A stretch of DNA of 47,631 bases, taken from Gloeomargarita sp. SKYG116. GTDB taxonomy: Bacteria > Cyanobacteriota > Cyanobacteriia > Gloeomargaritales > Gloeomargaritaceae. The position numbers and the translations under genes are program-made. Location: positions 1-47,631 of the forward strand of contig JANWVM010000017.1 in assembly GCA_025056115.1 (NCBI GenBank), read 5' to 3'. The notes beneath the pieces are model-generated. The model saw only the letters and a program-made list of their open reading frames with translations, was not told where the DNA came from and did no database searches. Numbering within the stretch: position 1 is the first letter of the stretch; every line of letters starts with the position of its first letter. Shown piece by piece: positions 45 to 40,971 of this stretch.

Positions 45-734
45 ATGTTTTACTTTGACCCGTTGTACTTGATATTGGCGCTGCCGGCTCTCGTGCTTGG
101 CTTGTGGGCGCAGATGCGAGTACAGTCAGCGTTTCAACGCTATTCGCAAGTAGGGACTCGGTTCACAGGGGCACAGGCAGCCCGTCTGTTGTTGGATCGC
201 TATGGCTTAAAAGGCGTGCGGGTAGAACGAGCATACGGTTTTTTAACCGATCACTACAATCCTTTGACGCGGGAGTTGTGCCTGAGTCCAGCGGTGTATG
301 ACGCGCCAACGGTCGCTGCTGTAGGGGTGGCCGCCCATGAAGCCGGTCATGCCTTGCAACACGCAGAGGGTTATGCCCCGTTGCAATTTCGCTCAGCGAT
401 TGTGCCAGTCGTGGCGTTTGGCAGTTGGCTGGGGCCGATCCTGTTCATGGTGGGGTTTGTTTTCAGCGCCCTGCGCATCTTGGCCTGGATTGGGGTACTC
501 ATTTTCGCCGCATCTGCCCTGTTTGCCCTGATTACATTGCCGGTGGAGTTTGACGCTAGCAACCGCGCCAAGAAACTGCTGGTGGCCGAAGGGATTTTAG
601 CGCCCCAGGAAATGGTGGGGGTCAATGCCGTATTGGACGCAGCAGCGTTGACGTACGTGGCGGCGGCGATTCAGGCCATTGCCAACCTGCTGTACTACGT
701 GCTGCTGTTACTGGGCAACCGGCAACGCGAGTAG
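45..734 (+). CDS. Membrane zinc metallopeptidase, YugP family
   Basis: This 229-residue protein is a membrane-embedded zinc metallopeptidase of the YugP/COG2738 family. The zinc motif HEAGH lies at residues 98-102 and supplies two zinc-binding histidines and the catalytic glutamate. A hydrophobic N-terminal helix (about residues 8-24) and two or three hydrophobic segments after the motif (about 118-180 and 205-225) place it in the membrane. The length is normal for the family. The ATG follows a purine-rich stretch (AAAGGA) at a short distance. Its last 27 bases overlap the end of the convergent glycosyltransferase-like gene. The physiological substrate of this family is unknown in cyanobacteria; membrane-protein quality control is only an inference. 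Confidence 0.9.
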   Translation: MFYFDPLYLILALPALVLGLWAQMRVQSAFQRYSQVGTRFTGAQAARLLLDRYGLKGVRVERAYGFLTDHYNPLTRELCLSPAVYDAPTVAAVGVAAHEAGHALQHAEGYAPLQFRSAIVPVVAFGSWLGPILFMVGFVFSALRILAWIGVLIFAASALFALITLPVEFDASNRAKKLLVAEGILAPQEMVGVNAVLDAAALTYVAAAIQAIANLLYYVLLLLGNRQRE

Positions 735-1889
735 CTGGAGAATTTCCTGGGCAATCCCTGCAGCGCCCCCGGCCCGGGCGACCCGTTCTCGGCCATTGCG
801 CCGGCAGCGTTGGTGATACAGTTCATCGTCCAAAATCTGATGCACTAAGTGGGCCGCTTGTTGTAATTCCCTGTCGCCAGCGGGACCTTGGCCAACGGTT
901 TGCACCGAACATCCCAGTAGTCGCATTTGCGCTTCGGCAAACCGGTACGTAAACTGCGGCCCACGCCCAGGAATCTGTATCACAGGTTTACCCAACCCCA
1001 CTGCCTGCTCAATGGCTGTGCCGGCCATGCCCACGACCACGCGGCTCGCCCACAGAATGTCCGCAAATTGCGACCGGCTGTAGTGAATAACCCCCTTATG
1101 GCACTGGAGTTGTCCTTCCTGGTGCAACCATCCTTCGGCTTGGGCGAGTTCACTTAGCACTGCATCGGTGAAGCCAGGTACGAGCGCGGCCCACACCTGC
1201 ACCTGGGGACGGATAGCGAACAGATAGCGACAAAAACGCAGTAACAACCGGAAATTGTCGGTGGCTTCGGGCAAACGACTGCCTGGCAAGAGCGCAACGA
1301 CAGGATAGGCGTTGTGGACATTGATTGGCTGGCCGCTGAGTTCTAGTCCGTCCATGATGGGATAGCCGGCAAAGACGGCTTTGACCATACCCTGTTGCTG
1401 CAACTGTTTCGCCGTCAAACCATCGCGTGTGAACACTTTGCGACATCGGGGCGCTGTCAATCCCCACCAGGTTAGCGCTGGTAGTTGCAATCGGCCTTCG
1501 TAATAACTGGATGTGGACACGATAAATGCCACGTAGGGCCGACCAGACAGGCGGGCAAAGGTCAAGGGAACGCCGTCGCCCACCGCCACCAGCAGGTCAG
1601 AATGGGGAGCCACCCGTTGCAACGCCCGCCATTGCTGCCAGGTCAACTGGGGTAGTCCCGCTAGCACGTCCTGCACCAGCACCAGCGGATTCATATAAAC
1701 CAGGCCCCCCGATGGCAATGCCCGCACCGGCCCCACAACCGGAATGTCCAAGCGCCGGTAGGCCTGCCCCAACCCCACCAGCGGTAATGCCAGAACGTCT
1801 GCCCCCCCTAACTGGCGACAGGCATCGGCAATCAAACTGGCGTTTAAGTCTTCTCCGTGCCCATTGCTGAGAAATAGCAGCCGCGCCAT
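708..1889 (-). CDS. Lipid-A-disaccharide synthase-related protein
   Basis: A 393-residue protein resembling the cyanobacterial family annotated as lipid-A-disaccharide synthase-related (TIGR03492), a GT-B-fold glycosyltransferase relative of LpxB. It opens with the family-like NGHGEDLNA motif (residues 9-17), and near residue 290 it has a GMAGTAIEQAVGLGKPVI segment, which looks like the sugar-nucleotide-binding part of GT-B enzymes. It is not LpxB proper, and the acceptor is unknown. Its start codon directly abuts the stop codon of the giant membrane-protein gene upstream, so the two are very probably cotranscribed and translationally coupled. The 3' end overlaps the convergent metallopeptidase gene. 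Confidence 0.85.
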   Translation of the reverse strand: MARLLFLSNGHGEDLNASLIADACRQLGGADVLALPLVGLGQAYRRLDIPVVGPVRALPSGGLVYMNPLVLVQDVLAGLPQLTWQQWRALQRVAPHSDLLVAVGDGVPLTFARLSGRPYVAFIVSTSSYYEGRLQLPALTWWGLTAPRCRKVFTRDGLTAKQLQQQGMVKAVFAGYPIMDGLELSGQPINVHNAYPVVALLPGSRLPEATDNFRLLLRFCRYLFAIRPQVQVWAALVPGFTDAVLSELAQAEGWLHQEGQLQCHKGVIHYSRSQFADILWASRVVVGMAGTAIEQAVGLGKPVIQIPGRGPQFTYRFAEAQMRLLGCSVQTVGQGPAGDRELQQAAHLVHQILDDELYHQRCRRNGRERVARAGGAAGIAQEILQLLALPVAQ

Positions 1890-4800
1890 CTATTCCCAAC
1901 CGGCCCAACCGCTGGTTATCAATGTCGTCAAGGCTTGTAGCCAGTCCCGCACTTGCGCCCGCCGCGTTTCAAAGGTCGCTGCCATCCACAATAACACCAC
2001 ACCAGCCGCTAACCCCAGCACCCAGATGAAAAAGCTATGGGTCGTGACAAACATCCAGACTTGGATCAATGCTTGCAAGGCAAAGACGAGCGTTCCCACC
2101 CACAGATAAGCCCGCACTCGTCGCCATAGACCCAACCCCGCCAGCGCCAATCCCAACGCCATCGTCAGCAATCCTGGTCCCCAAGCTCCTTGCGTTTCCC
2201 AAATCAACGTTGCCCCAATCAATCCCGTCGCCCAACATCGCAGTGCGTGGCGTTCTTCCCGTGTGTCCGCCTGCCGCCAATAGACATCTACCTGCGCCAC
2301 ATACAGCATTGACAGGCCGATGATCAGGGCGTAGGCCAAAAATGATGACCAGTCTTGCTCCCGCAGAAACTTGAACAATCCCCAATCCAGCAGCAGCAGA
2401 CTGACATAGCTCCAGCGCAAGTTATCCTTGGCGGCCCAGGCGTAAAATGCCGCTGTCACCAGTAGATTCGGCCAGGTCACCCAGTTCCCACCGGCTATCC
2501 AGCCCAACAGCAACACCGTCCCCCCTGGCACTGCCCATCCCACCGCCTGCCAGCGCTGTTTTTCCGGCCATCCCCACCGTTCCCAAGGGGCGCTCACGAA
2601 AAATAAGCCCAGCAAACTGCCCATGGTCCCCGCCCAGGCGGCTAACGTCGTCTCCGCTACCAGCACCATCAATATATCGCCTACTGCTGCTAGGAATATC
2701 GCCGCTCCTGCCCATACCCATGCCCCTTGATGCCGCCCGTACCCCAAGGCATAAACACTGCACAGTAAGAGGACAATGGCATTACCCACAACGCCACTTC
2801 GACTCGTAGGAAAGCCTAAGCGAATGGCTGCCAGCAGCACCGCCAATCCCCAGTGGGCATGTCCCAGGTAGAACGCCACTGCCGGTGCAATGACCCGCGC
2901 CCCCCAGCGTTGTAGGCCAACGTAGGCATAACTCAGCAGCATCGCCAACGCCGCCAATGCCATCCAGCCATCGCCCGGTTGTCCCGCCGGTTGTTGCAGG
3001 AGCCAATAGACCAGGAATTGATAGAGTCCTAACGAAATCGCCCCCCAACCGGTGTAGGTCAGCCATAGACTAAGCGAGCGCCAGCGCTGGATACTCAACA
3101 CCACCAGGCCAAAACCCACTGCCGTCCAACCCGTTAAATCTGTCAAGGGTGTTCCCAGCCCCACGACCAAACCAATCGTGACGTAGAACAGGGGAATGAC
3201 CATCACCCAGCGAGACGGTAATTGCCGCCGAAGCAGCACCAGCGCCACTAGACCCAAAACGGTATTGCCCAGCGCCAACACCAGCCAGCGGTCCGCCGTT
3301 GCCAGTACAGCGCCGACTCCCAGGGCTGCTTCCAATCCCAGCACCAGCATCCAGCCGACCCAGCCTTGCCCGCGTTGATACAACCGGTAGGCCAGCCCTA
3401 GATTGACAATTCCCAGGCCGGCGAGCGTGCGGACAACAGTGCTGGTATCCGGCAAAACACCTGCGGTATAGGCGGGGGAAATCGTGTACACTGCCCCGAA
3501 CAGCAGCCCCCCACTCACCACGGCTGCCCAATCATCGGCAATCCAGGCGTAAAGCTCTCGATGTAAAGCCAAATAGTGGCGGCCCGCCCACACCAGCAAT
3601 AAAAACCCCGTCTCGAGTAGGGTTGTGATGACTCCCAGCTCATCGGGGATCAACCGCAGCCACAGCCACCAGCCCAGCGACAGCGTCACCCAGCCGGTCA
3701 GACCATTTGGCCATTGCCAGGCATTGAATGCGGTTATCACTGCTGCTAACCCCAACGCCAGCGTTCGCCATTCATCCGGCATCCAAAGCGCCACCAACCC
3801 CGCACTCACAGTTGAAATCCCCAGCCACCAGCGCGGTAATGGGCACGGCGGCTGCCAGGCCAGAATACTCAACGCCAACGGGGGGAGCAGTCCGCCCAGC
3901 AACCAGGCATTTGGGGAACTCATGAGCCACTGTCCGTAACCCAGCGCCATGAGCACCAACCCTACCGGCCAGCCTGTTTGGCGCCAGCGATGCTCTGTAC
4001 AGCACCAGCACCATTCCCCCGCCGCCCCTATGAATAAAAGCAACGCCCAAATCTCGCTCGGTAATTCAGGCGCCAGCCGGTCAACGGCAAATAACACGGC
4101 ACTCCACGTTAAGGCTTGCCCTAGATAGACCCAACCGAGATGAACCGCTGGTTGTCCCCGCCCCCACCCCCACAGGTATAGAGCACAACCGCCCCAGAGC
4201 AGCACCCGCCAAGTGGGATTGGCCAGGCTGAGCACACACAAAGCCGCCCCTAACGCCAGGGCAAACCATCGGCCATCACGAGCAAAATCGGCATTTCCCC
4301 GGCGCTCCCACCACTGGCTGACCGCCAAGACCACTCCCAATGCCGGTAGCCACAGCACGCTAAGCAACACTGTCGGCATCCCCAACGTGCCCCCGACCCG
4401 TTCCGCTGTGGTCAGGATTGCATCTCGTACCGTTGCTGGAATCGCTGTCCACAGCAGCCACCAGGCTTGAAGTTGCAGCAATCCCAAACCCCAAATCCCT
4501 ATCCTGGCACGGGTTTGACGCACCCACCGGTAAATCAGCGCCCCTAGCACCAGCACCATGCCGGCTGCCGACCATGCCCATTCCGCGCCCCAACTGGCCC
4601 ACAACCATCCCGCCCACGCCAGCGGCCAGCCTACCCACTGCGGTCCCAACAGCACCAACAACCCACCGCTCCCGCCCACTGCCAAAGCCAATTCTCGCGC
4701 TGACCAACCCAGCGTCCCAATGGCCCGCACCAGCAACAGCCCCACGCTCCCAGCAACCGCTATTTCCGGCCATTGCCAGCGCCTTTGCCGCAGGAGCACT

Positions 4801-5954
4801 GCCGTTGCCAAGCCCACACCCAGATACACCGCGCCGTAAATGACCACCGGTTGCGGCCAGTACGATTGCAGCCAAGCTAACGCAAGCGCTACACCCGCCG
4901 ACCGGTTCTGCCCCAGTAACCACCATCCCAAACCGGTTAGTATCAGCCCTGAGCCGATGGCGACTGCCAATTGTTCCTGCCACAATCCCAGCCCATCCAT
5001 CGCCCAGAAGTTAATGGGAATCAACAGTAACGTCAGGCTCTGGAGTAAAGTCGTTGTCAAAGGCACCCGATTCGTACGCTGTAACCGCCAGGTCAGACCG
5101 CCAAACGCCAGTGTGTACAGCGCCAGAAGGGCGTACTGCCCGACCCGGCCCAAGACATCCCAAACGCTGACCACCAGCACCACCGACGACAGCACCACCA
5201 AAAACACCCCCACAAGTCCTAGCCAGAGAATGCTCAGCTCGGTTTGCAGGGATTGCAACAGTGCTGGTGGTTGAGCGATAGATGCCACCGGTTCAGTCAC
5301 GACAGAAACCACTCCTCGGCGCTGGTTGGCCACTCTTGTCATGTACGGAATGAGCAGAATATCTACCAATTGCCCGATGCCGCACAAGCCGAGGCTAAAA
5401 AACCACAGCAATCCCCAGCCTATTTGCCCTAGGTAGAGCCGGTGCAGGCCGCACAGTCCCACAAAGCCCAATGCCCACAGTAGATAGGCTGTTCCTACGG
5501 ATAGGGGCTGAACCGCTCCACCTAATCGTCCAGGTTCCGTCACGCGAGACGACCTTGGCTCTACCAACGACGGAATTTCCCTGAGCGGTTGCGTGAGATA
5601 GTCCTGGCAAAACCAGGCCAGCTGCTTGTCCGATAGCAACCCAAGTTGTAGCCAACGTTCTAACCCCCCTAACAACTGTTCCGGTAACTGGGAGAAAACC
5701 ACTTTCCCTTCGACTGGCGCCGTCACCAAACCCAATTCTGCCCAGGTCTTCATCCCTTGAATCACTCGGGGAATTTGGGCAGTAGTCGTGATGTTTAGCG
5801 TTAAATCAATCGTCCGCGCCTCTCGCTGGATAATCGCTAGGTTTAGGGTTGCACCTTCCCACAATCCCCGCTCTTGCCAGTCTTGTAATCCTGCCACCAG
5901 TGCAGCCGCCGATTGGCTGGAAAAACGCAACACATATCCTGCGGCTGGAGACAT
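1890..5954 (-). CDS. Giant polytopic membrane protein with TM2 domain (DUF2157-like)
   Basis: A protein of about 1354 residues. The frame extends to a TTG at 6008, but the ATG at 5954 is the better start. The first ~150 residues look soluble and include helices such as LERWLQLGLLSDKQLAWF, which resemble the N-terminal helix of DUF2157 proteins. Next comes a TM2-type hairpin (about residues 155-215) with the typical GLHRLYLG turn and a second helix ending in a polar QLVDILLIP segment. The remaining ~1100 residues are almost continuous hydrophobic, Trp/Leu/Gly-rich helices, by eye thirty or more transmembrane segments. No catalytic motif is visible. It is followed without a gap by the glycosyltransferase-like gene, so an envelope role is possible, but no function can be assigned. 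Confidence 0.85.
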   Translation of the reverse strand: MSPAAGYVLRFSSQSAAALVAGLQDWQERGLWEGATLNLAIIQREARTIDLTLNITTTAQIPRVIQGMKTWAELGLVTAPVEGKVVFSQLPEQLLGGLERWLQLGLLSDKQLAWFCQDYLTQPLREIPSLVEPRSSRVTEPGRLGGAVQPLSVGTAYLLWALGFVGLCGLHRLYLGQIGWGLLWFFSLGLCGIGQLVDILLIPYMTRVANQRRGVVSVVTEPVASIAQPPALLQSLQTELSILWLGLVGVFLVVLSSVVLVVSVWDVLGRVGQYALLALYTLAFGGLTWRLQRTNRVPLTTTLLQSLTLLLIPINFWAMDGLGLWQEQLAVAIGSGLILTGLGWWLLGQNRSAGVALALAWLQSYWPQPVVIYGAVYLGVGLATAVLLRQRRWQWPEIAVAGSVGLLLVRAIGTLGWSARELALAVGGSGGLLVLLGPQWVGWPLAWAGWLWASWGAEWAWSAAGMVLVLGALIYRWVRQTRARIGIWGLGLLQLQAWWLLWTAIPATVRDAILTTAERVGGTLGMPTVLLSVLWLPALGVVLAVSQWWERRGNADFARDGRWFALALGAALCVLSLANPTWRVLLWGGCALYLWGWGRGQPAVHLGWVYLGQALTWSAVLFAVDRLAPELPSEIWALLLFIGAAGEWCWCCTEHRWRQTGWPVGLVLMALGYGQWLMSSPNAWLLGGLLPPLALSILAWQPPCPLPRWWLGISTVSAGLVALWMPDEWRTLALGLAAVITAFNAWQWPNGLTGWVTLSLGWWLWLRLIPDELGVITTLLETGFLLLVWAGRHYLALHRELYAWIADDWAAVVSGGLLFGAVYTISPAYTAGVLPDTSTVVRTLAGLGIVNLGLAYRLYQRGQGWVGWMLVLGLEAALGVGAVLATADRWLVLALGNTVLGLVALVLLRRQLPSRWVMVIPLFYVTIGLVVGLGTPLTDLTGWTAVGFGLVVLSIQRWRSLSLWLTYTGWGAISLGLYQFLVYWLLQQPAGQPGDGWMALAALAMLLSYAYVGLQRWGARVIAPAVAFYLGHAHWGLAVLLAAIRLGFPTSRSGVVGNAIVLLLCSVYALGYGRHQGAWVWAGAAIFLAAVGDILMVLVAETTLAAWAGTMGSLLGLFFVSAPWERWGWPEKQRWQAVGWAVPGGTVLLLGWIAGGNWVTWPNLLVTAAFYAWAAKDNLRWSYVSLLLLDWGLFKFLREQDWSSFLAYALIIGLSMLYVAQVDVYWRQADTREERHALRCWATGLIGATLIWETQGAWGPGLLTMALGLALAGLGLWRRVRAYLWVGTLVFALQALIQVWMFVTTHSFFIWVLGLAAGVVLLWMAATFETRRAQVRDWLQALTTLITSGWAGWE

Positions 5955-6048: not shown

Positions 6049-6927
6049 ATGACTAATTTTTACGCCGTTATTCTTGACATGATAGATGCCCGCGTACACT
6101 GTGGAGACTGTGCAGAAATTTTGCAAGACTATCCCGATGCTTTTTTTGATTTAATTATCACATCACCCCCTTACGCGGACCGCCGCCAGTCTCTCTATGG
6201 TGGAGTTGCTCCTGAAGCCTATGTTGAATGGTTTTTACCAAAAGCCGAACAATTCTGGCGCGTACTTAAACCCAGTGGTTCTTTTGTTCTAAATATTAAA
6301 GAGAGAGTCGAAAACGGCGAGCGTCACACGTACGTACTAGAATTAATCCTGGCTCTCAAAAAAGCAGGATGGCTCTGGGTAGAAGAATACATTTGGCACA
6401 AAAAGAACTGCTATCCTGGCAAATGGCCAAACCGGTTTCGGGATGCCTGGGAACGATGTTTACACTTTACTAAAAGTCGCCAGTTCAAAATGCGACAAGA
6501 AGCGGTCATGGTACCTGTGGGTGATTGGGCTGAAAAGCGTCTCAAGCGGCTAGGTGAAAATGATGTCGTGCGTTTTGATTCACGAGTCGGAAGTGGCTTT
6601 GGTAAAAACATTGCGAATTGGCTTGGCCGAGAGTATGTCTACCCAACGAATGTACTAACTTTTGCGACTGAATGCAGTAATAAAAATCATCCAGCCGCTT
6701 TCCCTAAAGCATTACCAGAGTGGTTTATTAAGCTTTTTACCGACCCAGGTGACTGGGTGCTTGATCCGTTTGTTGGCAGTGGGACGACTATCGCCGCAGC
6801 AGTTCCTCTGGGACGCCACGTAGTGGGCATTGACTTGAAACCAGAATACTGCGAGTTAGCAAAAGCAGCAATTCCTGAGCAAATGGTTTTGTTAGAGCCA
6901 ACCGGAATGTATGTCTGCGACGGCTAG
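6049..6927 (+). CDS. Site-specific DNA methyltransferase (beta class, type II)
   Basis: A 292-residue exocyclic-amino DNA methyltransferase. The catalytic motif IV, TSPPY, is at residues 38-42, and the S-adenosylmethionine-binding motif I, DPFVGSGTT, is at residues 239-247. Catalytic motif before SAM motif is the beta-class order. TSPPY is most often seen in N4-cytosine enzymes, but N6-adenine specificity cannot be excluded. The region between the motifs is the presumed target-recognition domain. An alternative start at residue 11 (6079) would begin right at the conserved core. The downstream nuclease gene overlaps by 17 nt, forming a modification-then-restriction operon. The DNA is visibly AT-richer than the genes on either side, suggesting horizontal acquisition. 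Confidence 0.9.
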   Translation: MTNFYAVILDMIDARVHCGDCAEILQDYPDAFFDLIITSPPYADRRQSLYGGVAPEAYVEWFLPKAEQFWRVLKPSGSFVLNIKERVENGERHTYVLELILALKKAGWLWVEEYIWHKKNCYPGKWPNRFRDAWERCLHFTKSRQFKMRQEAVMVPVGDWAEKRLKRLGENDVVRFDSRVGSGFGKNIANWLGREYVYPTNVLTFATECSNKNHPAAFPKALPEWFIKLFTDPGDWVLDPFVGSGTTIAAAVPLGRHVVGIDLKPEYCELAKAAIPEQMVLLEPTGMYVCDG

Positions 6928-7666
6928 TCCCTTTGACCCATATCACGCAGCGCTTAGCAGCATCACTCTAAGTGACTTTGTTGGGCAATGGATTGACAAT
7001 TTTCACCAACGACGGCTAGATTCGCTGAATTCCCTGAAATTAGACCAGCTATTACGTCGGAAAAATATTTACCTTTTCAAAGCTAAGAACCTGGAAGTCG
7101 TTACTGACCTAGTTCGCTCCCTATTAGATGCCCATCTTTCATCCCAGGAAGAAACATTATTTGGCAAAGTATTGGAAGCAATTGCTTTGTTTGTCTGTGC
7201 TCGAACGCATAATGGCAGGAAATCAGCAGCACAGGGGATTGATATCGAGTTTCAATTCAATAGTAACTACTATATTGTTTCTGTGAAGTCTGGACCAAAC
7301 TGGGGTAATCACCAGCAAGTGCAACGAATGAAGCAAAACTTTTCGGCGGCCAAAAGAATTTTGAATCTCCCTAATGCTATAGCAGTTAATGGTTGTTGCT
7401 ATGGCCGAGATAATCAAGAAAACAAAGGTGATTATCTTAAGTTATGTGGCCAGTCTTTTTGGGAACTTATTTCTAATGACCCCAACTTTTATCTAAGCTT
7501 TATTGAGCCTTTAGGTCAGAATGCCAAGGAGAAGAACGAAGAATTTTTTCGGGGTTACTATCGGATAGTTAATCGCTTTACGGAAGAGTTTTTCCGGAAG
7601 GGATGGTGTCGTGATGGTAGAATCGATTGGGAAGGATTGGTTAAGTTTAACTCTGGTAAAACCTAG
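6911..7666 (+). CDS. Probable type II restriction endonuclease (PmeII-like)
   Basis: This 251-residue protein begins inside the last codons of the methyltransferase gene. Its position alone makes a cognate restriction endonuclease likely. A candidate PD-(D/E)XK-type core is visible: GIDIEF (residues 109-114, with D111 and E113), a hydrophobic strand, then VSVKSGPNWGN (residues 123-133) with K126. The position two before the lysine is Ser rather than Asp or Glu, so the core is a variant form. The KSGPNWGN segment recalls the PmeII family, from memory only. The AT-rich composition matches the methyltransferase. No controller protein or Vsr nuclease gene is seen next to the pair. Confidence 0.7.
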   Translation: MSATASPFDPYHAALSSITLSDFVGQWIDNFHQRRLDSLNSLKLDQLLRRKNIYLFKAKNLEVVTDLVRSLLDAHLSSQEETLFGKVLEAIALFVCARTHNGRKSAAQGIDIEFQFNSNYYIVSVKSGPNWGNHQQVQRMKQNFSAAKRILNLPNAIAVNGCCYGRDNQENKGDYLKLCGQSFWELISNDPNFYLSFIEPLGQNAKEKNEEFFRGYYRIVNRFTEEFFRKGWCRDGRIDWEGLVKFNSGKT

Positions 7667-22471: not shown

Positions 22472-23632
22472 TCAACTCTCAAAGTGGTCAACGACTTGGG
22501 CAAATGCTCGTGTGTCAATCCAAATGTCAGCATCGTAACTGCCGTTTTGACTAGTTGGGTACCAGTAGTAGTAATCCAAACCCACCTGATTGGCCAATAT
22601 CCAGTAACAATCGCGCCGAGGTACATCGGGAAAAATCTCCAGAACTCGCCCACCCGGTTCACACCAGGCGATATTCGTTAAACCGGCCCCGTGCAAGCCG
22701 ATAACATATTTTGCATTTCGGAATAAACTAATTTGCTCCGAGAAACTTAGATCTTCCAAGCAGTAAGCTGTATATCCGCGGCGAGTCAAATAGTCTAAAA
22801 CTTGGTCTTCATTAGCAATTTTTCGCCTTTTGGCTTTTCTACGACTAATGTAAATTTTCTTATTACTAGACACATCGAGATTTTGCCGCGGCAAAAAGGA
22901 ACTCCTTAAGAAATCTAAAATCCACCTCGGCTTTTCTCGAATATAGTTTGGTAGAACTACCAAAGGACATTTCAAGGAGTGACTGAACTTGGTATACATA
23001 ATTTGCTCTTTGCTGATGCCTAAAATATCTAGAGTTATCTGTAGTTGCGGTAGGGGCTTATCAACCAGAAAGTAGTCAATCTTAGGCCAGATTGCTTCTT
23101 TCTGCATTAAATAGAATTTTGGCAAGATATCAAACAGCCAATGCCAATAGTTTATGCCACCACCGCCATCCGTCATGACTGCGATGGTGTGGTCTACTGC
23201 CCGAGTGGTTGGAAATTTAAGGTGCAAGGCTTCATTTTCTGCAACTGGTAGCCCACACTGGCGGGAGCTGTCATGAATGACGCGACCATCATGCGCGACA
23301 ACACTGCCCATAGAACGATACGCTCTCAGAATGGTGCCCTCTGGTACGGTCAGCCAGTAGGTCTCAGGTATCTGCCGATGTGCTCGCTGGGAAAAGCAGG
23401 GGTGAATGTCGGTGTGAATGGTGTGCGGTAGCCTGTAAGTAACTTCATAACCTGGATAACAAACATGGTATTCTAAACCCGGTAATTGCCCGCAATAGTT
23501 TTGATAGTATTCCCAACTGGAAGCCCAATACCCTTTCGCTGGTATGGTTCCTAAAATAGGAGTTGTCCACTTCAACCAGCGGCGATGTATCTTTTCAAAA
23601 AGTTCGTATTTGCTGCCTACTGCTGTTGTCAT
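22472..23632 (-). CDS. Glycosyltransferase family 61 protein (DUF563)
   Basis: A 386-residue GT61-family enzyme. Signatures in the C-terminal half are IYISRRKAKRRKI, a VIGLHGAGLTN segment and an EIFPD motif, all typical of this family, which adds sugars to polysaccharides or glycans. An earlier DGGGGINYWHWLFDILPK segment also fits. No signal peptide is seen, so the protein is probably cytosolic or peripheral. The start is taken at the ATG 10 nt after the egtD stop; the in-frame extension to 23686 would overlap egtD. The gene is noticeably AT-richer than its neighbours, suggesting more recent acquisition. Acceptor unknown. Confidence 0.88.
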   Translation of the reverse strand: MTTAVGSKYELFEKIHRRWLKWTTPILGTIPAKGYWASSWEYYQNYCGQLPGLEYHVCYPGYEVTYRLPHTIHTDIHPCFSQRAHRQIPETYWLTVPEGTILRAYRSMGSVVAHDGRVIHDSSRQCGLPVAENEALHLKFPTTRAVDHTIAVMTDGGGGINYWHWLFDILPKFYLMQKEAIWPKIDYFLVDKPLPQLQITLDILGISKEQIMYTKFSHSLKCPLVVLPNYIREKPRWILDFLRSSFLPRQNLDVSSNKKIYISRRKAKRRKIANEDQVLDYLTRRGYTAYCLEDLSFSEQISLFRNAKYVIGLHGAGLTNIAWCEPGGRVLEIFPDVPRRDCYWILANQVGLDYYYWYPTSQNGSYDADIWIDTRAFAQVVDHFES

Positions 23633-23642
23633 TTGTGCGTCA

Positions 23643-24650
23643 CTATACCCGTTTACATAGCAATAAAGCAAACCACTTTTGCTCATCCTGCCAGACCCGT
23701 TGCACTGGTAAACCGTGGCAGTCGAGTTGTTTGGCCATTAAAGTGACATCAAACTTGCGGGAAATTTCCGTGCGAATTGTTTCCTGGGCCCTCAAGTCCA
23801 CCTCTAAACCTAAATCCAGTAACTGGATGACTTGATACTCTAAACTAACCAGGTGCATTTCAATCTGGTGCAGTTCCTCATTATAAAACGCCCAGTGGGT
23901 AAAACGGTCTAGGCTAAAGTTGCCCCTGAAGCAATGATTGAGATGGCGCAGAATGTTGAGGTTGAAGGCGGCTGTGACTCCTTGACTATCATTATAGGCT
24001 GCTGTCAAGACGTGAATGTCCTTTTGCAAATCAACTCCTAGTAAAAAGTGATCACCTGGGCTAAGGCTGAGATAGATTTGGCGCAGGAATTGGCCCTCTT
24101 CTTGGGGAGATAAGTTACCAATGGTACTGCCTAAGAAGATGAGTAAACGTGCTCGCGCTGAAGGAGGTAAGTGCTCTAACGCGGTTTCATAAACACCTGC
24201 TAGGGCATGGATAAATAGGCAAGGATAGTCGGCCAAGAGATGGAGCGCTGTGGTTTGTAACATTGTGGTACTGACGTCAATGGGGATATAAGTGCAATCT
24301 CCCTGTAATTGGCTGTAGGCATCCAGAAGCAGGCGAGTTTTGCGGGAGCTGCCACTGCCTAACTCCACGAGGTCGCACGGGCCAGTCAGCGCAGCAATTT
24401 CTGGAGCCGCAGACGCTAAGATTTTCTGTTCGGTGCGGGTAGGATAATACTCCGGTAAATTGCAAATTTGTTCAAACAATTCCGAACCCCGTTGGTCATA
24501 GAAGTAGTAGCTGGGTAGGGTTTTGGGACGGCGCGTTAAGCCCTGAATGACATCGGCTCCCCGTTGACCCGTGGGTATCGGGACCAGGTCGCAACGGTAG
24601 CGATGGCGCAAGTCGTATTCCATGGGTTCCCCCCTGACCACCGTTAGCAT
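23643..24650 (-). CDS. egtD: L-histidine N-alpha-methyltransferase (ergothioneine pathway)
   Basis: This 335-residue protein trimethylates histidine to hercynine, the first step of ergothioneine synthesis. Family signatures are YYFYDQRGSELFEQIC-NLPEYYPTRTE (split here for length), the SAM-binding LVELGSGSSRKTR, IPIDVSTTML, and FLGSTIGNLSPQE. The in-frame ATG at 24623 is preceded by AGGGGGG and is an alternative start giving 326 residues. The gene lies 10 nt from cruA upstream and 10 nt from the GT61 gene downstream, so all three are probably one transcript. The usual partner egtB (hercynine sulfoxide synthase) is not adjacent. DUF2260-type histidine methyltransferases outside this pathway remain an alternative. 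Confidence 0.9.
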   Translation of the reverse strand: MLTVVRGEPMEYDLRHRYRCDLVPIPTGQRGADVIQGLTRRPKTLPSYYFYDQRGSELFEQICNLPEYYPTRTEQKILASAAPEIAALTGPCDLVELGSGSSRKTRLLLDAYSQLQGDCTYIPIDVSTTMLQTTALHLLADYPCLFIHALAGVYETALEHLPPSARARLLIFLGSTIGNLSPQEEGQFLRQIYLSLSPGDHFLLGVDLQKDIHVLTAAYNDSQGVTAAFNLNILRHLNHCFRGNFSLDRFTHWAFYNEELHQIEMHLVSLEYQVIQLLDLGLEVDLRAQETIRTEISRKFDVTLMAKQLDCHGLPVQRVWQDEQKWFALLLCKRV

Positions 24651-24660
24651 GATACGCGGG

Positions 24661-26664
24661 CTAGGAGGACACCGACAACCGCCGTTCTACCCGTGGTCGC
24701 CCGACGCTGTAGCCCAGGTGATAACTCTGCGCCAGCCATAGCAGCCACCATTTGGGGAAGTGCTTTTCTAACCAGGGTTGTCCCCACCGCAAAACGACAG
24801 GCCACCAAGGCAGCAACACTGCACTCACTAGCGCTTCCCAAGTGAATATGACGTAGCTGCGTAACCAGCGAAGCATTTCCTGCCACTCCGTCAGGGGCCA
24901 AATCCAAACCAAAATCAGCGGGTTGGTCCATGCCGCCTTGAGGGCCATATGGGTAAATTCCCACCAGCCGCTACGGTCTTTGATGAAGCGGTCGGCGACT
25001 TCCGGCGGCGCCTTGGCCAATAACCCAAAAAAGGTGTTGAGAATGCTGTTGATGTGGGCCGGCGGCAGTTGCTTACCCGTGGGCACCATCATCCCCTTGG
25101 AAAAGAGCCAAGTGACCGATGTATTGCCCTGGTAAGCCCGGATGACGTTGAGGGAATTGGCATCGAGTAGATCATGTCGCAGCGCTGTGTCCAGTAAATC
25201 GGTTAGACGGGGGAGATTGCGCACGAGGGACCCAAAGCCGGTAAACACCAGAGGGGACTGCAACGCCGCTGCATCGCCAATGCTGATCACCCGGTCCCAA
25301 GCCACCCGACGTTCCCCAAAGCTGCTACTGAAATGGCCCGGAATGTAGCCAAATGTCGCTTTGACCCATTGCAACTGCTCCAGGTCGCAGCGGCGGTATT
25401 CGGGAAAGATATGGAAAAAGTCTTCGTACAGTTCCAGAAGGGAACCCGGATTTTGTGGGCAGGGCTGGTGATAGTGAAACAAATACACTGTTAATTCATC
25501 CCGCGCCCCTGGGAACAACTCCCAGATCAACTGCCGCCCCCGGGAAATATCGCCGTGACTGTGCAGGACATCCCCGTAACGCCGGTCCCACACCTGCGGG
25601 TCCAGCCCCCGCAACACCGCTCCTACCGTGGGACACACACTGTCAAAGGCCCGTCCACCGTTCAACTGCCAAGCAATCGGCGAGGCCGTTCCCATCGCAT
25701 CCACCAGTAACCGACCGGTCACCTGCTGAATTTGACCAGTGCGCAGACAACGAAACTGCACCGTGACCCCCTGGGCGCCGACGTCGGCTTTGATAAATTC
25801 ACCCTCATCCCAGATATCGCCCCCAGCCCGCCGTAATTTCTCTCCAGCCAGTTGCAATAACTTCTGGGCGTCCAGGGCGATGTTCAACACAGTCGGGGTA
25901 TGGAGCACCGGCGCGCGCACCTTGGGGGGAACTTCCGGCCAATAAAACTGGTGAAATCCGTCCTCGTACTCACAGGCAATGGTGCGCTCAATTTCCGCAG
26001 CGGTAAATAGATTCAGGTCAATTAGGGTTTGCAACTCGCTACGGGAGATATTCCATTCTCGATTCATTCGCCCAAACGGTAATCGCTCAATCAACAAGAC
26101 CCGATATCCCAAACGCGCCATCACTGCTGCATGAATGACGCCCAGCGCGCCTCCCACATAAATCAAGTCGTAGTCCGGTCGGGCGTTCACAGTACCAGCA
26201 AACAAAACCTGATTGACCTGGGGATTCTGTACACCCTGGCGCCAGCGTTGCTCCCACCAGTACACTCGCTTCAGGTCATACGCGCCATTGGGGATTTTCT
26301 GGAAAAAATGCACCGTCGCCGGATAATGAGGAGCCAGCGCTGTGAAAATGTCATCTCGCGTCAGGTCAATGGTGGGGAAAACCGGGTATTGAAGCGGGAA
26401 CTCCCGGTCAAGGTCAGCCGTCAACTGGCGCAACCACAGGCGCTCCCCTGGCCCGGCCTGCCAACGGAAGACTTTTAAGTAGGTTGTTCGCTGTAGCCCC
26501 CAAGTCACTACCGTCCACTCCCCACTCCCCTGCCGCAGGTGTAATCCGGTAGGCATTGGCGTTACCGTCAACTCTGGCGCCCGCCACTGCTGTAACCACG
26601 CCCGCACCCGCTCCACCGCTGGACAAGGAATTTCTCGGTACAAAAGCTCCTGTATCACCGGCAT
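24661..26664 (-). CDS. cruA: Lycopene cyclase, CruA family (FAD-dependent)
   Basis: A 667-residue flavoprotein of the CruA/CruP group, which closes the ends of lycopene to make cyclic carotenoids. A dinucleotide-binding fold begins near residue 165 (YDLIYVGGALGVIHAA), followed by LLIERLPFGRMNREWNIS, which fits CruA better than its paralogue CruP from memory. A second FAD-binding element GDAAALQSPLVFTGFG lies near residue 480. The C-terminus (about 560-650) has Trp-rich hydrophobic stretches that may attach it to thylakoid or plasma membrane. The ATG at 26664 is preferred to the TTG one codon earlier. An AT-rich 110-nt divergent region upstream presumably holds its promoter. CruP remains possible. 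Confidence 0.78.
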   Translation of the reverse strand: MPVIQELLYREIPCPAVERVRAWLQQWRAPELTVTPMPTGLHLRQGSGEWTVVTWGLQRTTYLKVFRWQAGPGERLWLRQLTADLDREFPLQYPVFPTIDLTRDDIFTALAPHYPATVHFFQKIPNGAYDLKRVYWWEQRWRQGVQNPQVNQVLFAGTVNARPDYDLIYVGGALGVIHAAVMARLGYRVLLIERLPFGRMNREWNISRSELQTLIDLNLFTAAEIERTIACEYEDGFHQFYWPEVPPKVRAPVLHTPTVLNIALDAQKLLQLAGEKLRRAGGDIWDEGEFIKADVGAQGVTVQFRCLRTGQIQQVTGRLLVDAMGTASPIAWQLNGGRAFDSVCPTVGAVLRGLDPQVWDRRYGDVLHSHGDISRGRQLIWELFPGARDELTVYLFHYHQPCPQNPGSLLELYEDFFHIFPEYRRCDLEQLQWVKATFGYIPGHFSSSFGERRVAWDRVISIGDAAALQSPLVFTGFGSLVRNLPRLTDLLDTALRHDLLDANSLNVIRAYQGNTSVTWLFSKGMMVPTGKQLPPAHINSILNTFFGLLAKAPPEVADRFIKDRSGWWEFTHMALKAAWTNPLILVWIWPLTEWQEMLRWLRSYVIFTWEALVSAVLLPWWPVVLRWGQPWLEKHFPKWWLLWLAQSYHLGYSVGRPRVERRLSVSS

Positions 26665-26774
26665 CAATCCCCAAAATTTGTTACATTCTTAGAAACATCC
26701 TTAAAAAAGTTTACAATCTTCTCATAATAATGAGCGCATCCTTTTACGCTGTTACTTACTGATTGTGGATCGTG

Positions 26775-40698: not shown

Positions 40699-40971
40699 CT
40701 ATAGCCAACCTTTCTTATTGACGATGTAGGTATTGACAAACTCCTCGTCGCTTTTAGTCAAGTAAATAATGCCTTCAATCAAACCAACAATGCCCATCGC
40801 TGCCGAGGCCAGACCACAGGTAATCACGCCACCCACCAAACTGACTAGCAACATAATCAATCCTTCGGTGGTATAGCCCAAAACAAACTTGTGGACACCA
40901 AACGCCCCAAGAACAATCGCCAGCACGCCTGCTAGTACTTTTTTATTGGCATCCGGTGTATTGGTTGTCAT
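40699..40971 (-). CDS. TM2-domain membrane protein
   Basis: A 90-residue protein with a classic TM2 hairpin: helix LAGVLAIVLGAFGVHKF, the turn FVLGYTTEGL, and helix LIMLLVSLVGGVITCGLAS, then IVGLIEGIIYLTKSDEEF. The ATG at 40971 has a GGAG sequence upstream and is preferred to 41073, which would overlap YbjN. TM2 proteins are widespread, with unclear function. A TM2 hairpin also occurs in the giant membrane protein near the left edge of the window. Confidence 0.9.
   Translation of the reverse strand: MTTNTPDANKKVLAGVLAIVLGAFGVHKFVLGYTTEGLIMLLVSLVGGVITCGLASAAMGIVGLIEGIIYLTKSDEEFVNTYIVNKKGWL

What the first reader, a model, noticed from the sequence alone, without database searches (positions are those of the whole stretch)
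1890..5954. Giant 1354-residue membrane protein with TM2 hairpin, coupled to a glycosyltransferase-like gene
The protein has a soluble DUF2157-like start, a TM2 hairpin, then about 1100 residues of nearly continuous Trp/Gly/Leu-rich helices with no catalytic motif. Its stop abuts the start of an LpxB-related gene. Such length and helix number are rare; the pair may handle an envelope lipid or glycan.
Basis: partly seen in the sequence, partly recalled or inferred. Interest (0 to 1): 0.6.

Follow-up and report, generated by a model that had tools for sequence, protein, structure and literature searches.

The report
Giant 43-helix cyanobacterial membrane protein
This gene makes an unusually large membrane protein, found across many cyanobacteria, that looks like a stretched-out version of a small membrane-protein family distantly related to a protein that shields other bacteria from membrane-lipid damage; the sugar-transfer gene beside it is a local accident, not a partner.

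Summary
In detail: on the minus strand, 1890-5954 encodes 1354 residues with a TM2 hairpin and about 1,120 residues of near-continuous helices (about 41 hydrophobic peaks plus the TM2 pair). Its stop abuts a TIGR03492 (LpxB-related) start.

The proposed pairing fails. The two genes adjoin in only 3 of 7 same-genus genomes and in none of about 60 other cyanobacterial loci. TIGR03492 is present in every genome tested, including those without the giant.

The giant is an old, single-copy family seen only in Cyanobacteriia, at about 1,240-1,660 residues. Profile comparison shows it is an expanded DUF2157 protein. The DUF2157 head matches residues 85-130 plus 228-344 once TM2 is cut out, and the DUF2157 tail matches the giant's C-terminus. 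TM2 is therefore an insertion inside the head, present only in two families (f1, f5). The middle grows by modules: five relatives carry two or three copies of the segment equivalent to residues ~710-865 (about 6 helices).

DUF2157 also resembles, weakly, DUF2339/Arc3A, a many-helix protein without catalytic motif that prevents lysophospholipid build-up after phospholipase attack. An Arc3A-like role in membrane-lipid protection is the best guess and is inferred. No solved relative was found. New variant of a known kind.

The parts
1890..5954 (-). Giant membrane protein gene, 1354 aa, ATG at 5954, stop at 1890-1892
   Evidence: Translation; conserved full-length family
5691..5954 (-). Residues 1-88: lineage-variable soluble N-terminal domain, modelled as strand-helix-strand-strand-helix-strand (ferredoxin-like order)
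   Evidence: AF2 model, pLDDT about 46-72; present in f1 relatives, absent in most others of the 57-sequence alignment
5586..5690 (-). Residues 89-123: cytosolic helical start of the DUF2157-type head (L..GL..W..LGL motif)
   Evidence: Key columns conserved in 84-96% of sequences; part of the DUF2157-N profile match
5358..5501 (-). Residues 152-199: TM2 domain inserted within the DUF2157 head
   Evidence: PF05154 41.1 bits; absent from giants outside families f1 and f5
4923..5273 (-). Residues 228-344: transmembrane part of the DUF2157-type head, the most conserved part of the protein (S241, W244, S256, S257, W265, Y274, N315, W317, D320 and others)
2436..4922 (-). Residues 345-1173: middle expansion, near-continuous TM helices, no family match
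   Evidence: Hydropathy and model; Pfam scan of 30 members finds only DUF2157 recurrently
3360..3827 (-). Residues ~710-865: segment that is duplicated or triplicated in five relatives (about 6 helices)
   Evidence: Overlapping HMM hits in L171 (x3), L173, L174, L175, L176
1893..2435 (-). Residues 1174-1354: C-terminal tail homologous to the C-terminus of DUF2157 proteins (match ~1211-1338), with a conserved FE.RR near its end
   Evidence: hhalign score 35.9 vs shuffled maximum 23.9;
708..1889 (-). TIGR03492 lipid-A-disaccharide-synthase-related gene; abuts but is not a conserved partner
   Evidence: 404.9 bits vs cut-off 219.2; neighbourhood; distribution

Best explanation
It is a giant, cyanobacteria-specific member of the DUF2157/DUF2339-like group of membrane proteins: a DUF2157-type head and tail with about 830-870 residues of extra transmembrane helices between them, and a TM2 hairpin inserted in the head. 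Shown: architecture, insertion, modular growth, distribution, independence from the TIGR03492 gene. Inferred: it has no active site and acts as a helix-rich intramembrane scaffold in the envelope (or thylakoid) membrane that protects membrane lipids. As proposed for the DUF2339 protein Arc3A, it would stop lysolipids or other damaged lipids from building up by sequestering, shielding or routing them, while its cytosolic head and the TM2 hairpin would sense or tune the response.
For: DUF2157-N profile against the giant with TM2 excised: probability 87.7, score 42.3, versus 24.0 for the next window and a maximum of 27.1 in 20 shuffles. DUF2157-C against the giant's C-terminus: score 35.9 versus shuffled maximum 23.9. 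PF09925 finds the giants of many genomes at the same place, a few above its gathering cut-off (G211, 35.3 bits). DUF2157 and DUF2339 profiles match N-to-N (30.1) and C-to-C (27.3), weakly but in register, with off-diagonal pairs at 13.9 and 22.1. PF09925 also hits the N-termini of two DUF2339 proteins (G148, G164) at E 1e-4 to 5e-4. Arc3A: DUF2339, 35 predicted TM segments, no enzymatic signature, prevents lysophospholipid accumulation (PMC8926400); lipase-effector role confirmed (PMC12663445). LiaF, described as having DUF2157 TM helices, belongs to an envelope-stress system (PMC11237479). Within Cyanobacteriia, clear DUF2339 proteins were found only in four genomes that lack the giant. Mid-protein segment duplicated in five relatives. 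K+R-rich loops alternate (31.2 vs 15.6 per protein). Conserved motifs in loops assigned to the non-cytosolic side: NFWAMD, NP..R, GDG.
Against: No direct significant match between the giant and DUF2339/Arc3A (score 30.5, reversed control 29.3); the link runs through DUF2157 and is weak. The window's own PF09925 score (21.4 bits) is below the cut-off of 32.4. The DUF2339/giant exclusion rests on one family (f26), hence perhaps one event. No conserved neighbour, no lipid gene and no phenotype supports the role. Arc3A's own mechanism is unknown. The core model is of moderate confidence (pLDDT 69, pTM 0.41).
Confidence: 0.35

Rival explanations
1. Structural or organising protein of the photosynthetic or plasma membrane: a large helix array that shapes, corrals or scaffolds membrane patches or complexes, with no direct lipid-damage role.
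For: Restricted to Cyanobacteriia; Trp-rich, no active-site family; models resemble tandem helical repeats (best Z 14.3 to a designed circular repeat protein, rmsd 14.2 over 371 residues), an arrangement expected of a scaffold; modular length changes.
Against: Not found in several cyanobacteria (G020, G021, G027, G030, G036), so not a core photosynthesis part; helical-repeat matches at this Z can be generic; localisation unknown.
Confidence: 0.25
2. Envelope-stress sensor or signalling hub: the DUF2157-type head and TM2 sense membrane state and signal through the cytosolic N-terminal domain, as LiaF-type proteins are thought to do in PSP/Lia systems.
For: DUF2157 named as the TM part of LiaF (PMC11237479); head is the most conserved part; lineage-specific soluble N-terminal domain.
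Against: No regulator, kinase or Psp-like gene is a conserved neighbour; a sensor hardly needs 40 extra helices.
Confidence: 0.15
3. Transporter or channel for an unknown solute with a fold not yet solved.
For: Many conserved polar residues in or near membrane helices (R410, E875, N897, D995, H1034); no PDB relative by sequence.
Against: Segment duplication and fission at a mid-point (L067, L061) fit an open-ended array better than a closed transporter core; no transporter family match.
Confidence: 0.15
4. One reading: an operon pair with the LpxB-related glycosyltransferase, handling an envelope lipid or glycan (flippase or polymerase).
For: Direct abutment, conserved in G000, G001 and G003; an invariant Asp (D320) in a loop assigned to the non-cytosolic side.
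Against: Not adjacent in four same-genus genomes or in other cyanobacteria; TIGR03492 present where the giant is absent; no long extracytosolic loop and no glycosyltransferase family match.
Confidence: 0.06

Closest known systems
DUF2157 (PF09925) membrane proteins
   Same: Helical cytosolic start, transmembrane head and C-terminal tail all match by profile; the window's genome also holds an ordinary 433-residue DUF2157 frame on another contig
   Different: Giant is about three times longer; TM2 inserted in the head; window protein scores below the Pfam cut-off
Arc3A / DUF2339 (PF10101), Pseudomonas aeruginosa PA5114
   Same: Very long multi-helix protein with variable helix number and no catalytic signature; weak in-register similarity through DUF2157 (PMC8926400)
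   Different: No direct significant profile match to the giant; no conserved neighbour of the Arc3B or Aas kind seen; function in cyanobacteria untested
TM2 domain proteins (PF05154)
   Same: Hairpin passes the Pfam cut-off
   Different: In the genomes tested TM2 otherwise occurs in short frames of 85-245 codons; here it is inserted in a giant, only in families f1 and f5
LiaF-type DUF2157 proteins of the Lia/PSP envelope-stress systems
   Same: DUF2157-type TM helices (PMC11237479)
   Different: LiaF ends in a globular DUF2154 domain; no such domain here

Membership tests
DUF2157 (PF09925) | Pfam gathering score 32.4 bits | tested here: not met
   Window giant 21.4 bits at residues ~240-318; several orthologues pass (G211 35.3; G055, G090, G145 with neighbours in the frame)
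DUF2157 (PF09925) | Head sequence: cytosolic helical start followed by TM segment | tested here: met
   hhalign probability 87.7 with TM2 excised; controls far lower
DUF2157-type full-length proteins | Homologous C-terminal tail | tested here: met
   Score 35.9, shuffled maximum 23.9
DUF2339 / Arc3A (PF10101) | Pfam profile match | tested here: not met
   No match at E<=1 to the giant in 16 genomes
DUF2339 / Arc3A | Profile-profile similarity to DUF2339 proteins | tested here: inconclusive
   Direct score no better than reversed control; indirect link via DUF2157 in register but weak
DUF2339 / Arc3A | Prevents lysophospholipid accumulation | not testable with these tools
   Needs knock-out and lipidomics
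TM2 domain (PF05154) | Pfam gathering score 27.9 bits | tested here: met
   41.1 bits, residues 152-199
Operon partner of TIGR03492 | Conserved adjacency in relatives | tested here: not met
   3 of 7 genus genomes, none elsewhere
Helical-repeat (solenoid) fold | Confident structural match to a repeat fold | tested here: inconclusive
   Best Z 14.3 with rmsd 14.2, near the background for helical repeats; core model pTM 0.41

The most novel reading that the evidence does not exclude
The giant is an open-ended transmembrane helical-repeat array (a curved intramembrane fence or partial ring) that lengthens by whole ~155-residue, 6-helix modules between a fixed DUF2157 head and tail, and that corrals or shields damaged lipids; DUF2339/Arc3A would be its widespread cousin.
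Probability: 0.15. Interest if true: 0.8.

Novelty: new variant of a known kind. Interest (0 to 1): 0.45.

Why it matters
The family is among the longest polytopic proteins in cyanobacteria, is widespread and mostly single-copy, and no described function was found in the papers searched (only one paper in the library mentions DUF2157, and that in the context of LiaF). Linking it to DUF2157, and loosely to Arc3A, gives a testable hypothesis (protection against membrane-lipid damage) in genetically tractable strains, and a second system for the open question of how dozens of helices without an active site protect membranes.

Tried and rejected
Conserved operon partner: rejected; no neighbour cluster recurs beyond close relatives, and the ones checked are ordinary (Mfd-like helicase, ABC transporter, peroxiredoxins, photolyase, FtsW/RodA, UvrD). 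Whole-protein internal repeat: half-against-half hhalign score 38.9 against a shuffled maximum of 34.3, not convincing; one segment pair, 553-668 with 1023-1146, reached probability 82 and stays weak. Self-BLAST of the lengthened relatives found no repeats; only the HMM did. PDB sequence relatives: none at E<=1. Foldseek and VIA-align: mostly TPR/HEAT-like and designed helical repeats at low TM-score and large rmsd; not used for function. PADLOC defence models: none. Plasmids: two Acaryochloris plasmids carry a partial match called 'hypothetical protein'. Literature: no paper in the library mentions TIGR03492; one mentions DUF2157.

Full report
WHAT IS THERE. The reported gene is on the minus strand: ATG at 5954, TAG at 1890-1892, 1354 residues. 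It is a real gene. Same-length homologues occur in the same-genus genomes (98% identity in G001, ~71% in G003 where a frameshift splits it, 52-56% in G002, G004-G006). More distant full-length homologues of about 1,240-1,580 residues occur in named cyanobacteria such as Microcoleus, Fischerella, Dolichospermum, Calothrix and Prochloron. Pfam sees only TM2 at residues 152-199; NCBIfam sees nothing meaningful. Hydropathy averaged over the family gives about 41 peaks after the TM2 pair, and the AF2 model of residues 205-1354 has 44 helices. Basic residues alternate between loops (31.2 against 15.6), with one change of phase near residues 480-510, which fits a cytosolic N-terminus and a long serial array. 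Trp is 7.6% here and 3.5-7.6% in the family.

THE NEIGHBOUR. The giant's stop is followed directly by the ATG of a TIGR03492 gene. This arrangement is shared only by G001 and G003. In G002, G004, G005 and G006 the giant has other neighbours, and in about 60 further cyanobacterial loci (some on short contigs) no close TIGR03492 homologue is near. TIGR03492 occurs in all 17 genomes tested, usually twice, including five with no giant. No other neighbour recurs beyond close relatives.

WHAT THE PROTEIN IS. PF09925 (DUF2157) hits the giants of many cyanobacteria at residues ~240-318, mostly just below and sometimes above its cut-off. I built a profile from 30 cyanobacterial DUF2157 proteins and compared its ends with windows of the giant family. 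The DUF2157 head matched residues 85-130 joined to 228-344, that is, with TM2 cut out, at score 42.3; the next window scored 24.0 and 20 shuffles at most 27.1. The DUF2157 tail matched the giant's last 180 residues at 35.9, against a shuffled maximum of 23.9. So head and tail are homologous to an ordinary ~500-residue DUF2157 protein, and the middle is extra. TM2 sits inside the head; it is present in the giants of families f1 and f5 and absent from the others aligned.

HOW IT VARIES. In five relatives (L171, L173-L176) an HMM anchored on the window protein matches the segment equivalent to residues ~710-865 two or three times. In L067 and L061 the gene is split into two consecutive ORFs near residues 763-818. 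In three small genomes of one genus (G169, G203, G285) only stop-riddled remnants remain, and the G127 copy is broken by several stops. The family was found only in class Cyanobacteriia: 64 of 291 phylum genomes had a match, all in that class, a few of them remnants; a scan of one genome per species over bacteria and archaea also returned only cyanobacteria (which reaches close relatives only). The pattern suggests a useful but dispensable protein with a tolerant, modular middle.

LINK TO A KNOWN FUNCTION. DUF2157 and DUF2339 profiles match head-to-head and tail-to-tail, weakly but in register, and PF09925 hits the N-termini of two DUF2339 proteins. Arc3A of Pseudomonas aeruginosa is a DUF2339 protein with 35 predicted TM segments and no enzymatic signature; it prevents lysophospholipid accumulation after phospholipase attack, by an unknown mechanism (PMC8926400), and a second study confirmed its role against lipase effectors (PMC12663445). 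LiaF, described as having DUF2157 TM helices, is part of an envelope-stress system (PMC11237479). In Cyanobacteriia, clear DUF2339 proteins were found only in four genomes of family f26, none of which has the giant. The exclusion is suggestive, but it may be one event. A direct giant-to-DUF2339 comparison was no better than its reversed control, so I do not claim membership of the Arc3A family.

STRUCTURE. The 205-1354 model has pLDDT 69 and pTM 0.41. The 1-640 model is better (mean pLDDT 73.4, mostly 72-92 from residue 261). Residues 1-88 are modelled as a small alpha/beta domain at modest confidence. The best structural matches are helical-repeat proteins, with a designed circular tandem-repeat protein on top at Z 14.3 but rmsd 14.2 over 371 residues. 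That is near the level expected for any regular helical array, so it only hints at a repeat-like layout.

VERDICT. An Arc3A-like, non-enzymatic membrane-lipid protection role is the best current guess (about 0.35), with membrane scaffolding as the main rival.

Noticed in passing
window 6049-7666 (+): A type II restriction-modification pair (N6_N4 methylase plus EcoO109I-type endonuclease, PF14511 E 5e-74) lies divergently just upstream of the giant; no homologue was found near the giant in the relatives compared.
   Followed up: partly
window 22472-26667 (-): egtD-type histidine methyltransferase (TIGR03438) beside a 668-residue protein with no Pfam match and only weak flavoprotein/geranylgeranyl-reductase-like similarity, and a GT61 glycosyltransferase.
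   Followed up: no
window 40825-40947 (-): A second, stand-alone TM2 domain in a short frame of 138 codons, in the same window as the TM2-bearing giant.
   Followed up: no
G037:C1:1811319-1814872 (L091): The giant of this genome (contig of 2,696,255 bp, recalled as Synechococcus elongatus PCC 6301) has its last ~48 residues in another frame: a frameshift or sequencing error near the C-terminus.
   Followed up: no
G169, G203, G285 (family f29, genus g64, 2.8-3.1 Mb): Stop-riddled remnants of the giant in small genomes, while a larger genome of the same genus (G165) keeps an intact copy; possibly host-associated lineages.
   Followed up: no
L067:7932-11716 and L061:172-3425 (Candidatus Paraprochloron terpiosi): The giant is encoded as two consecutive ORFs separated by a few bases in two genomes, with the break near window residues 763-818.
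   Followed up: partly
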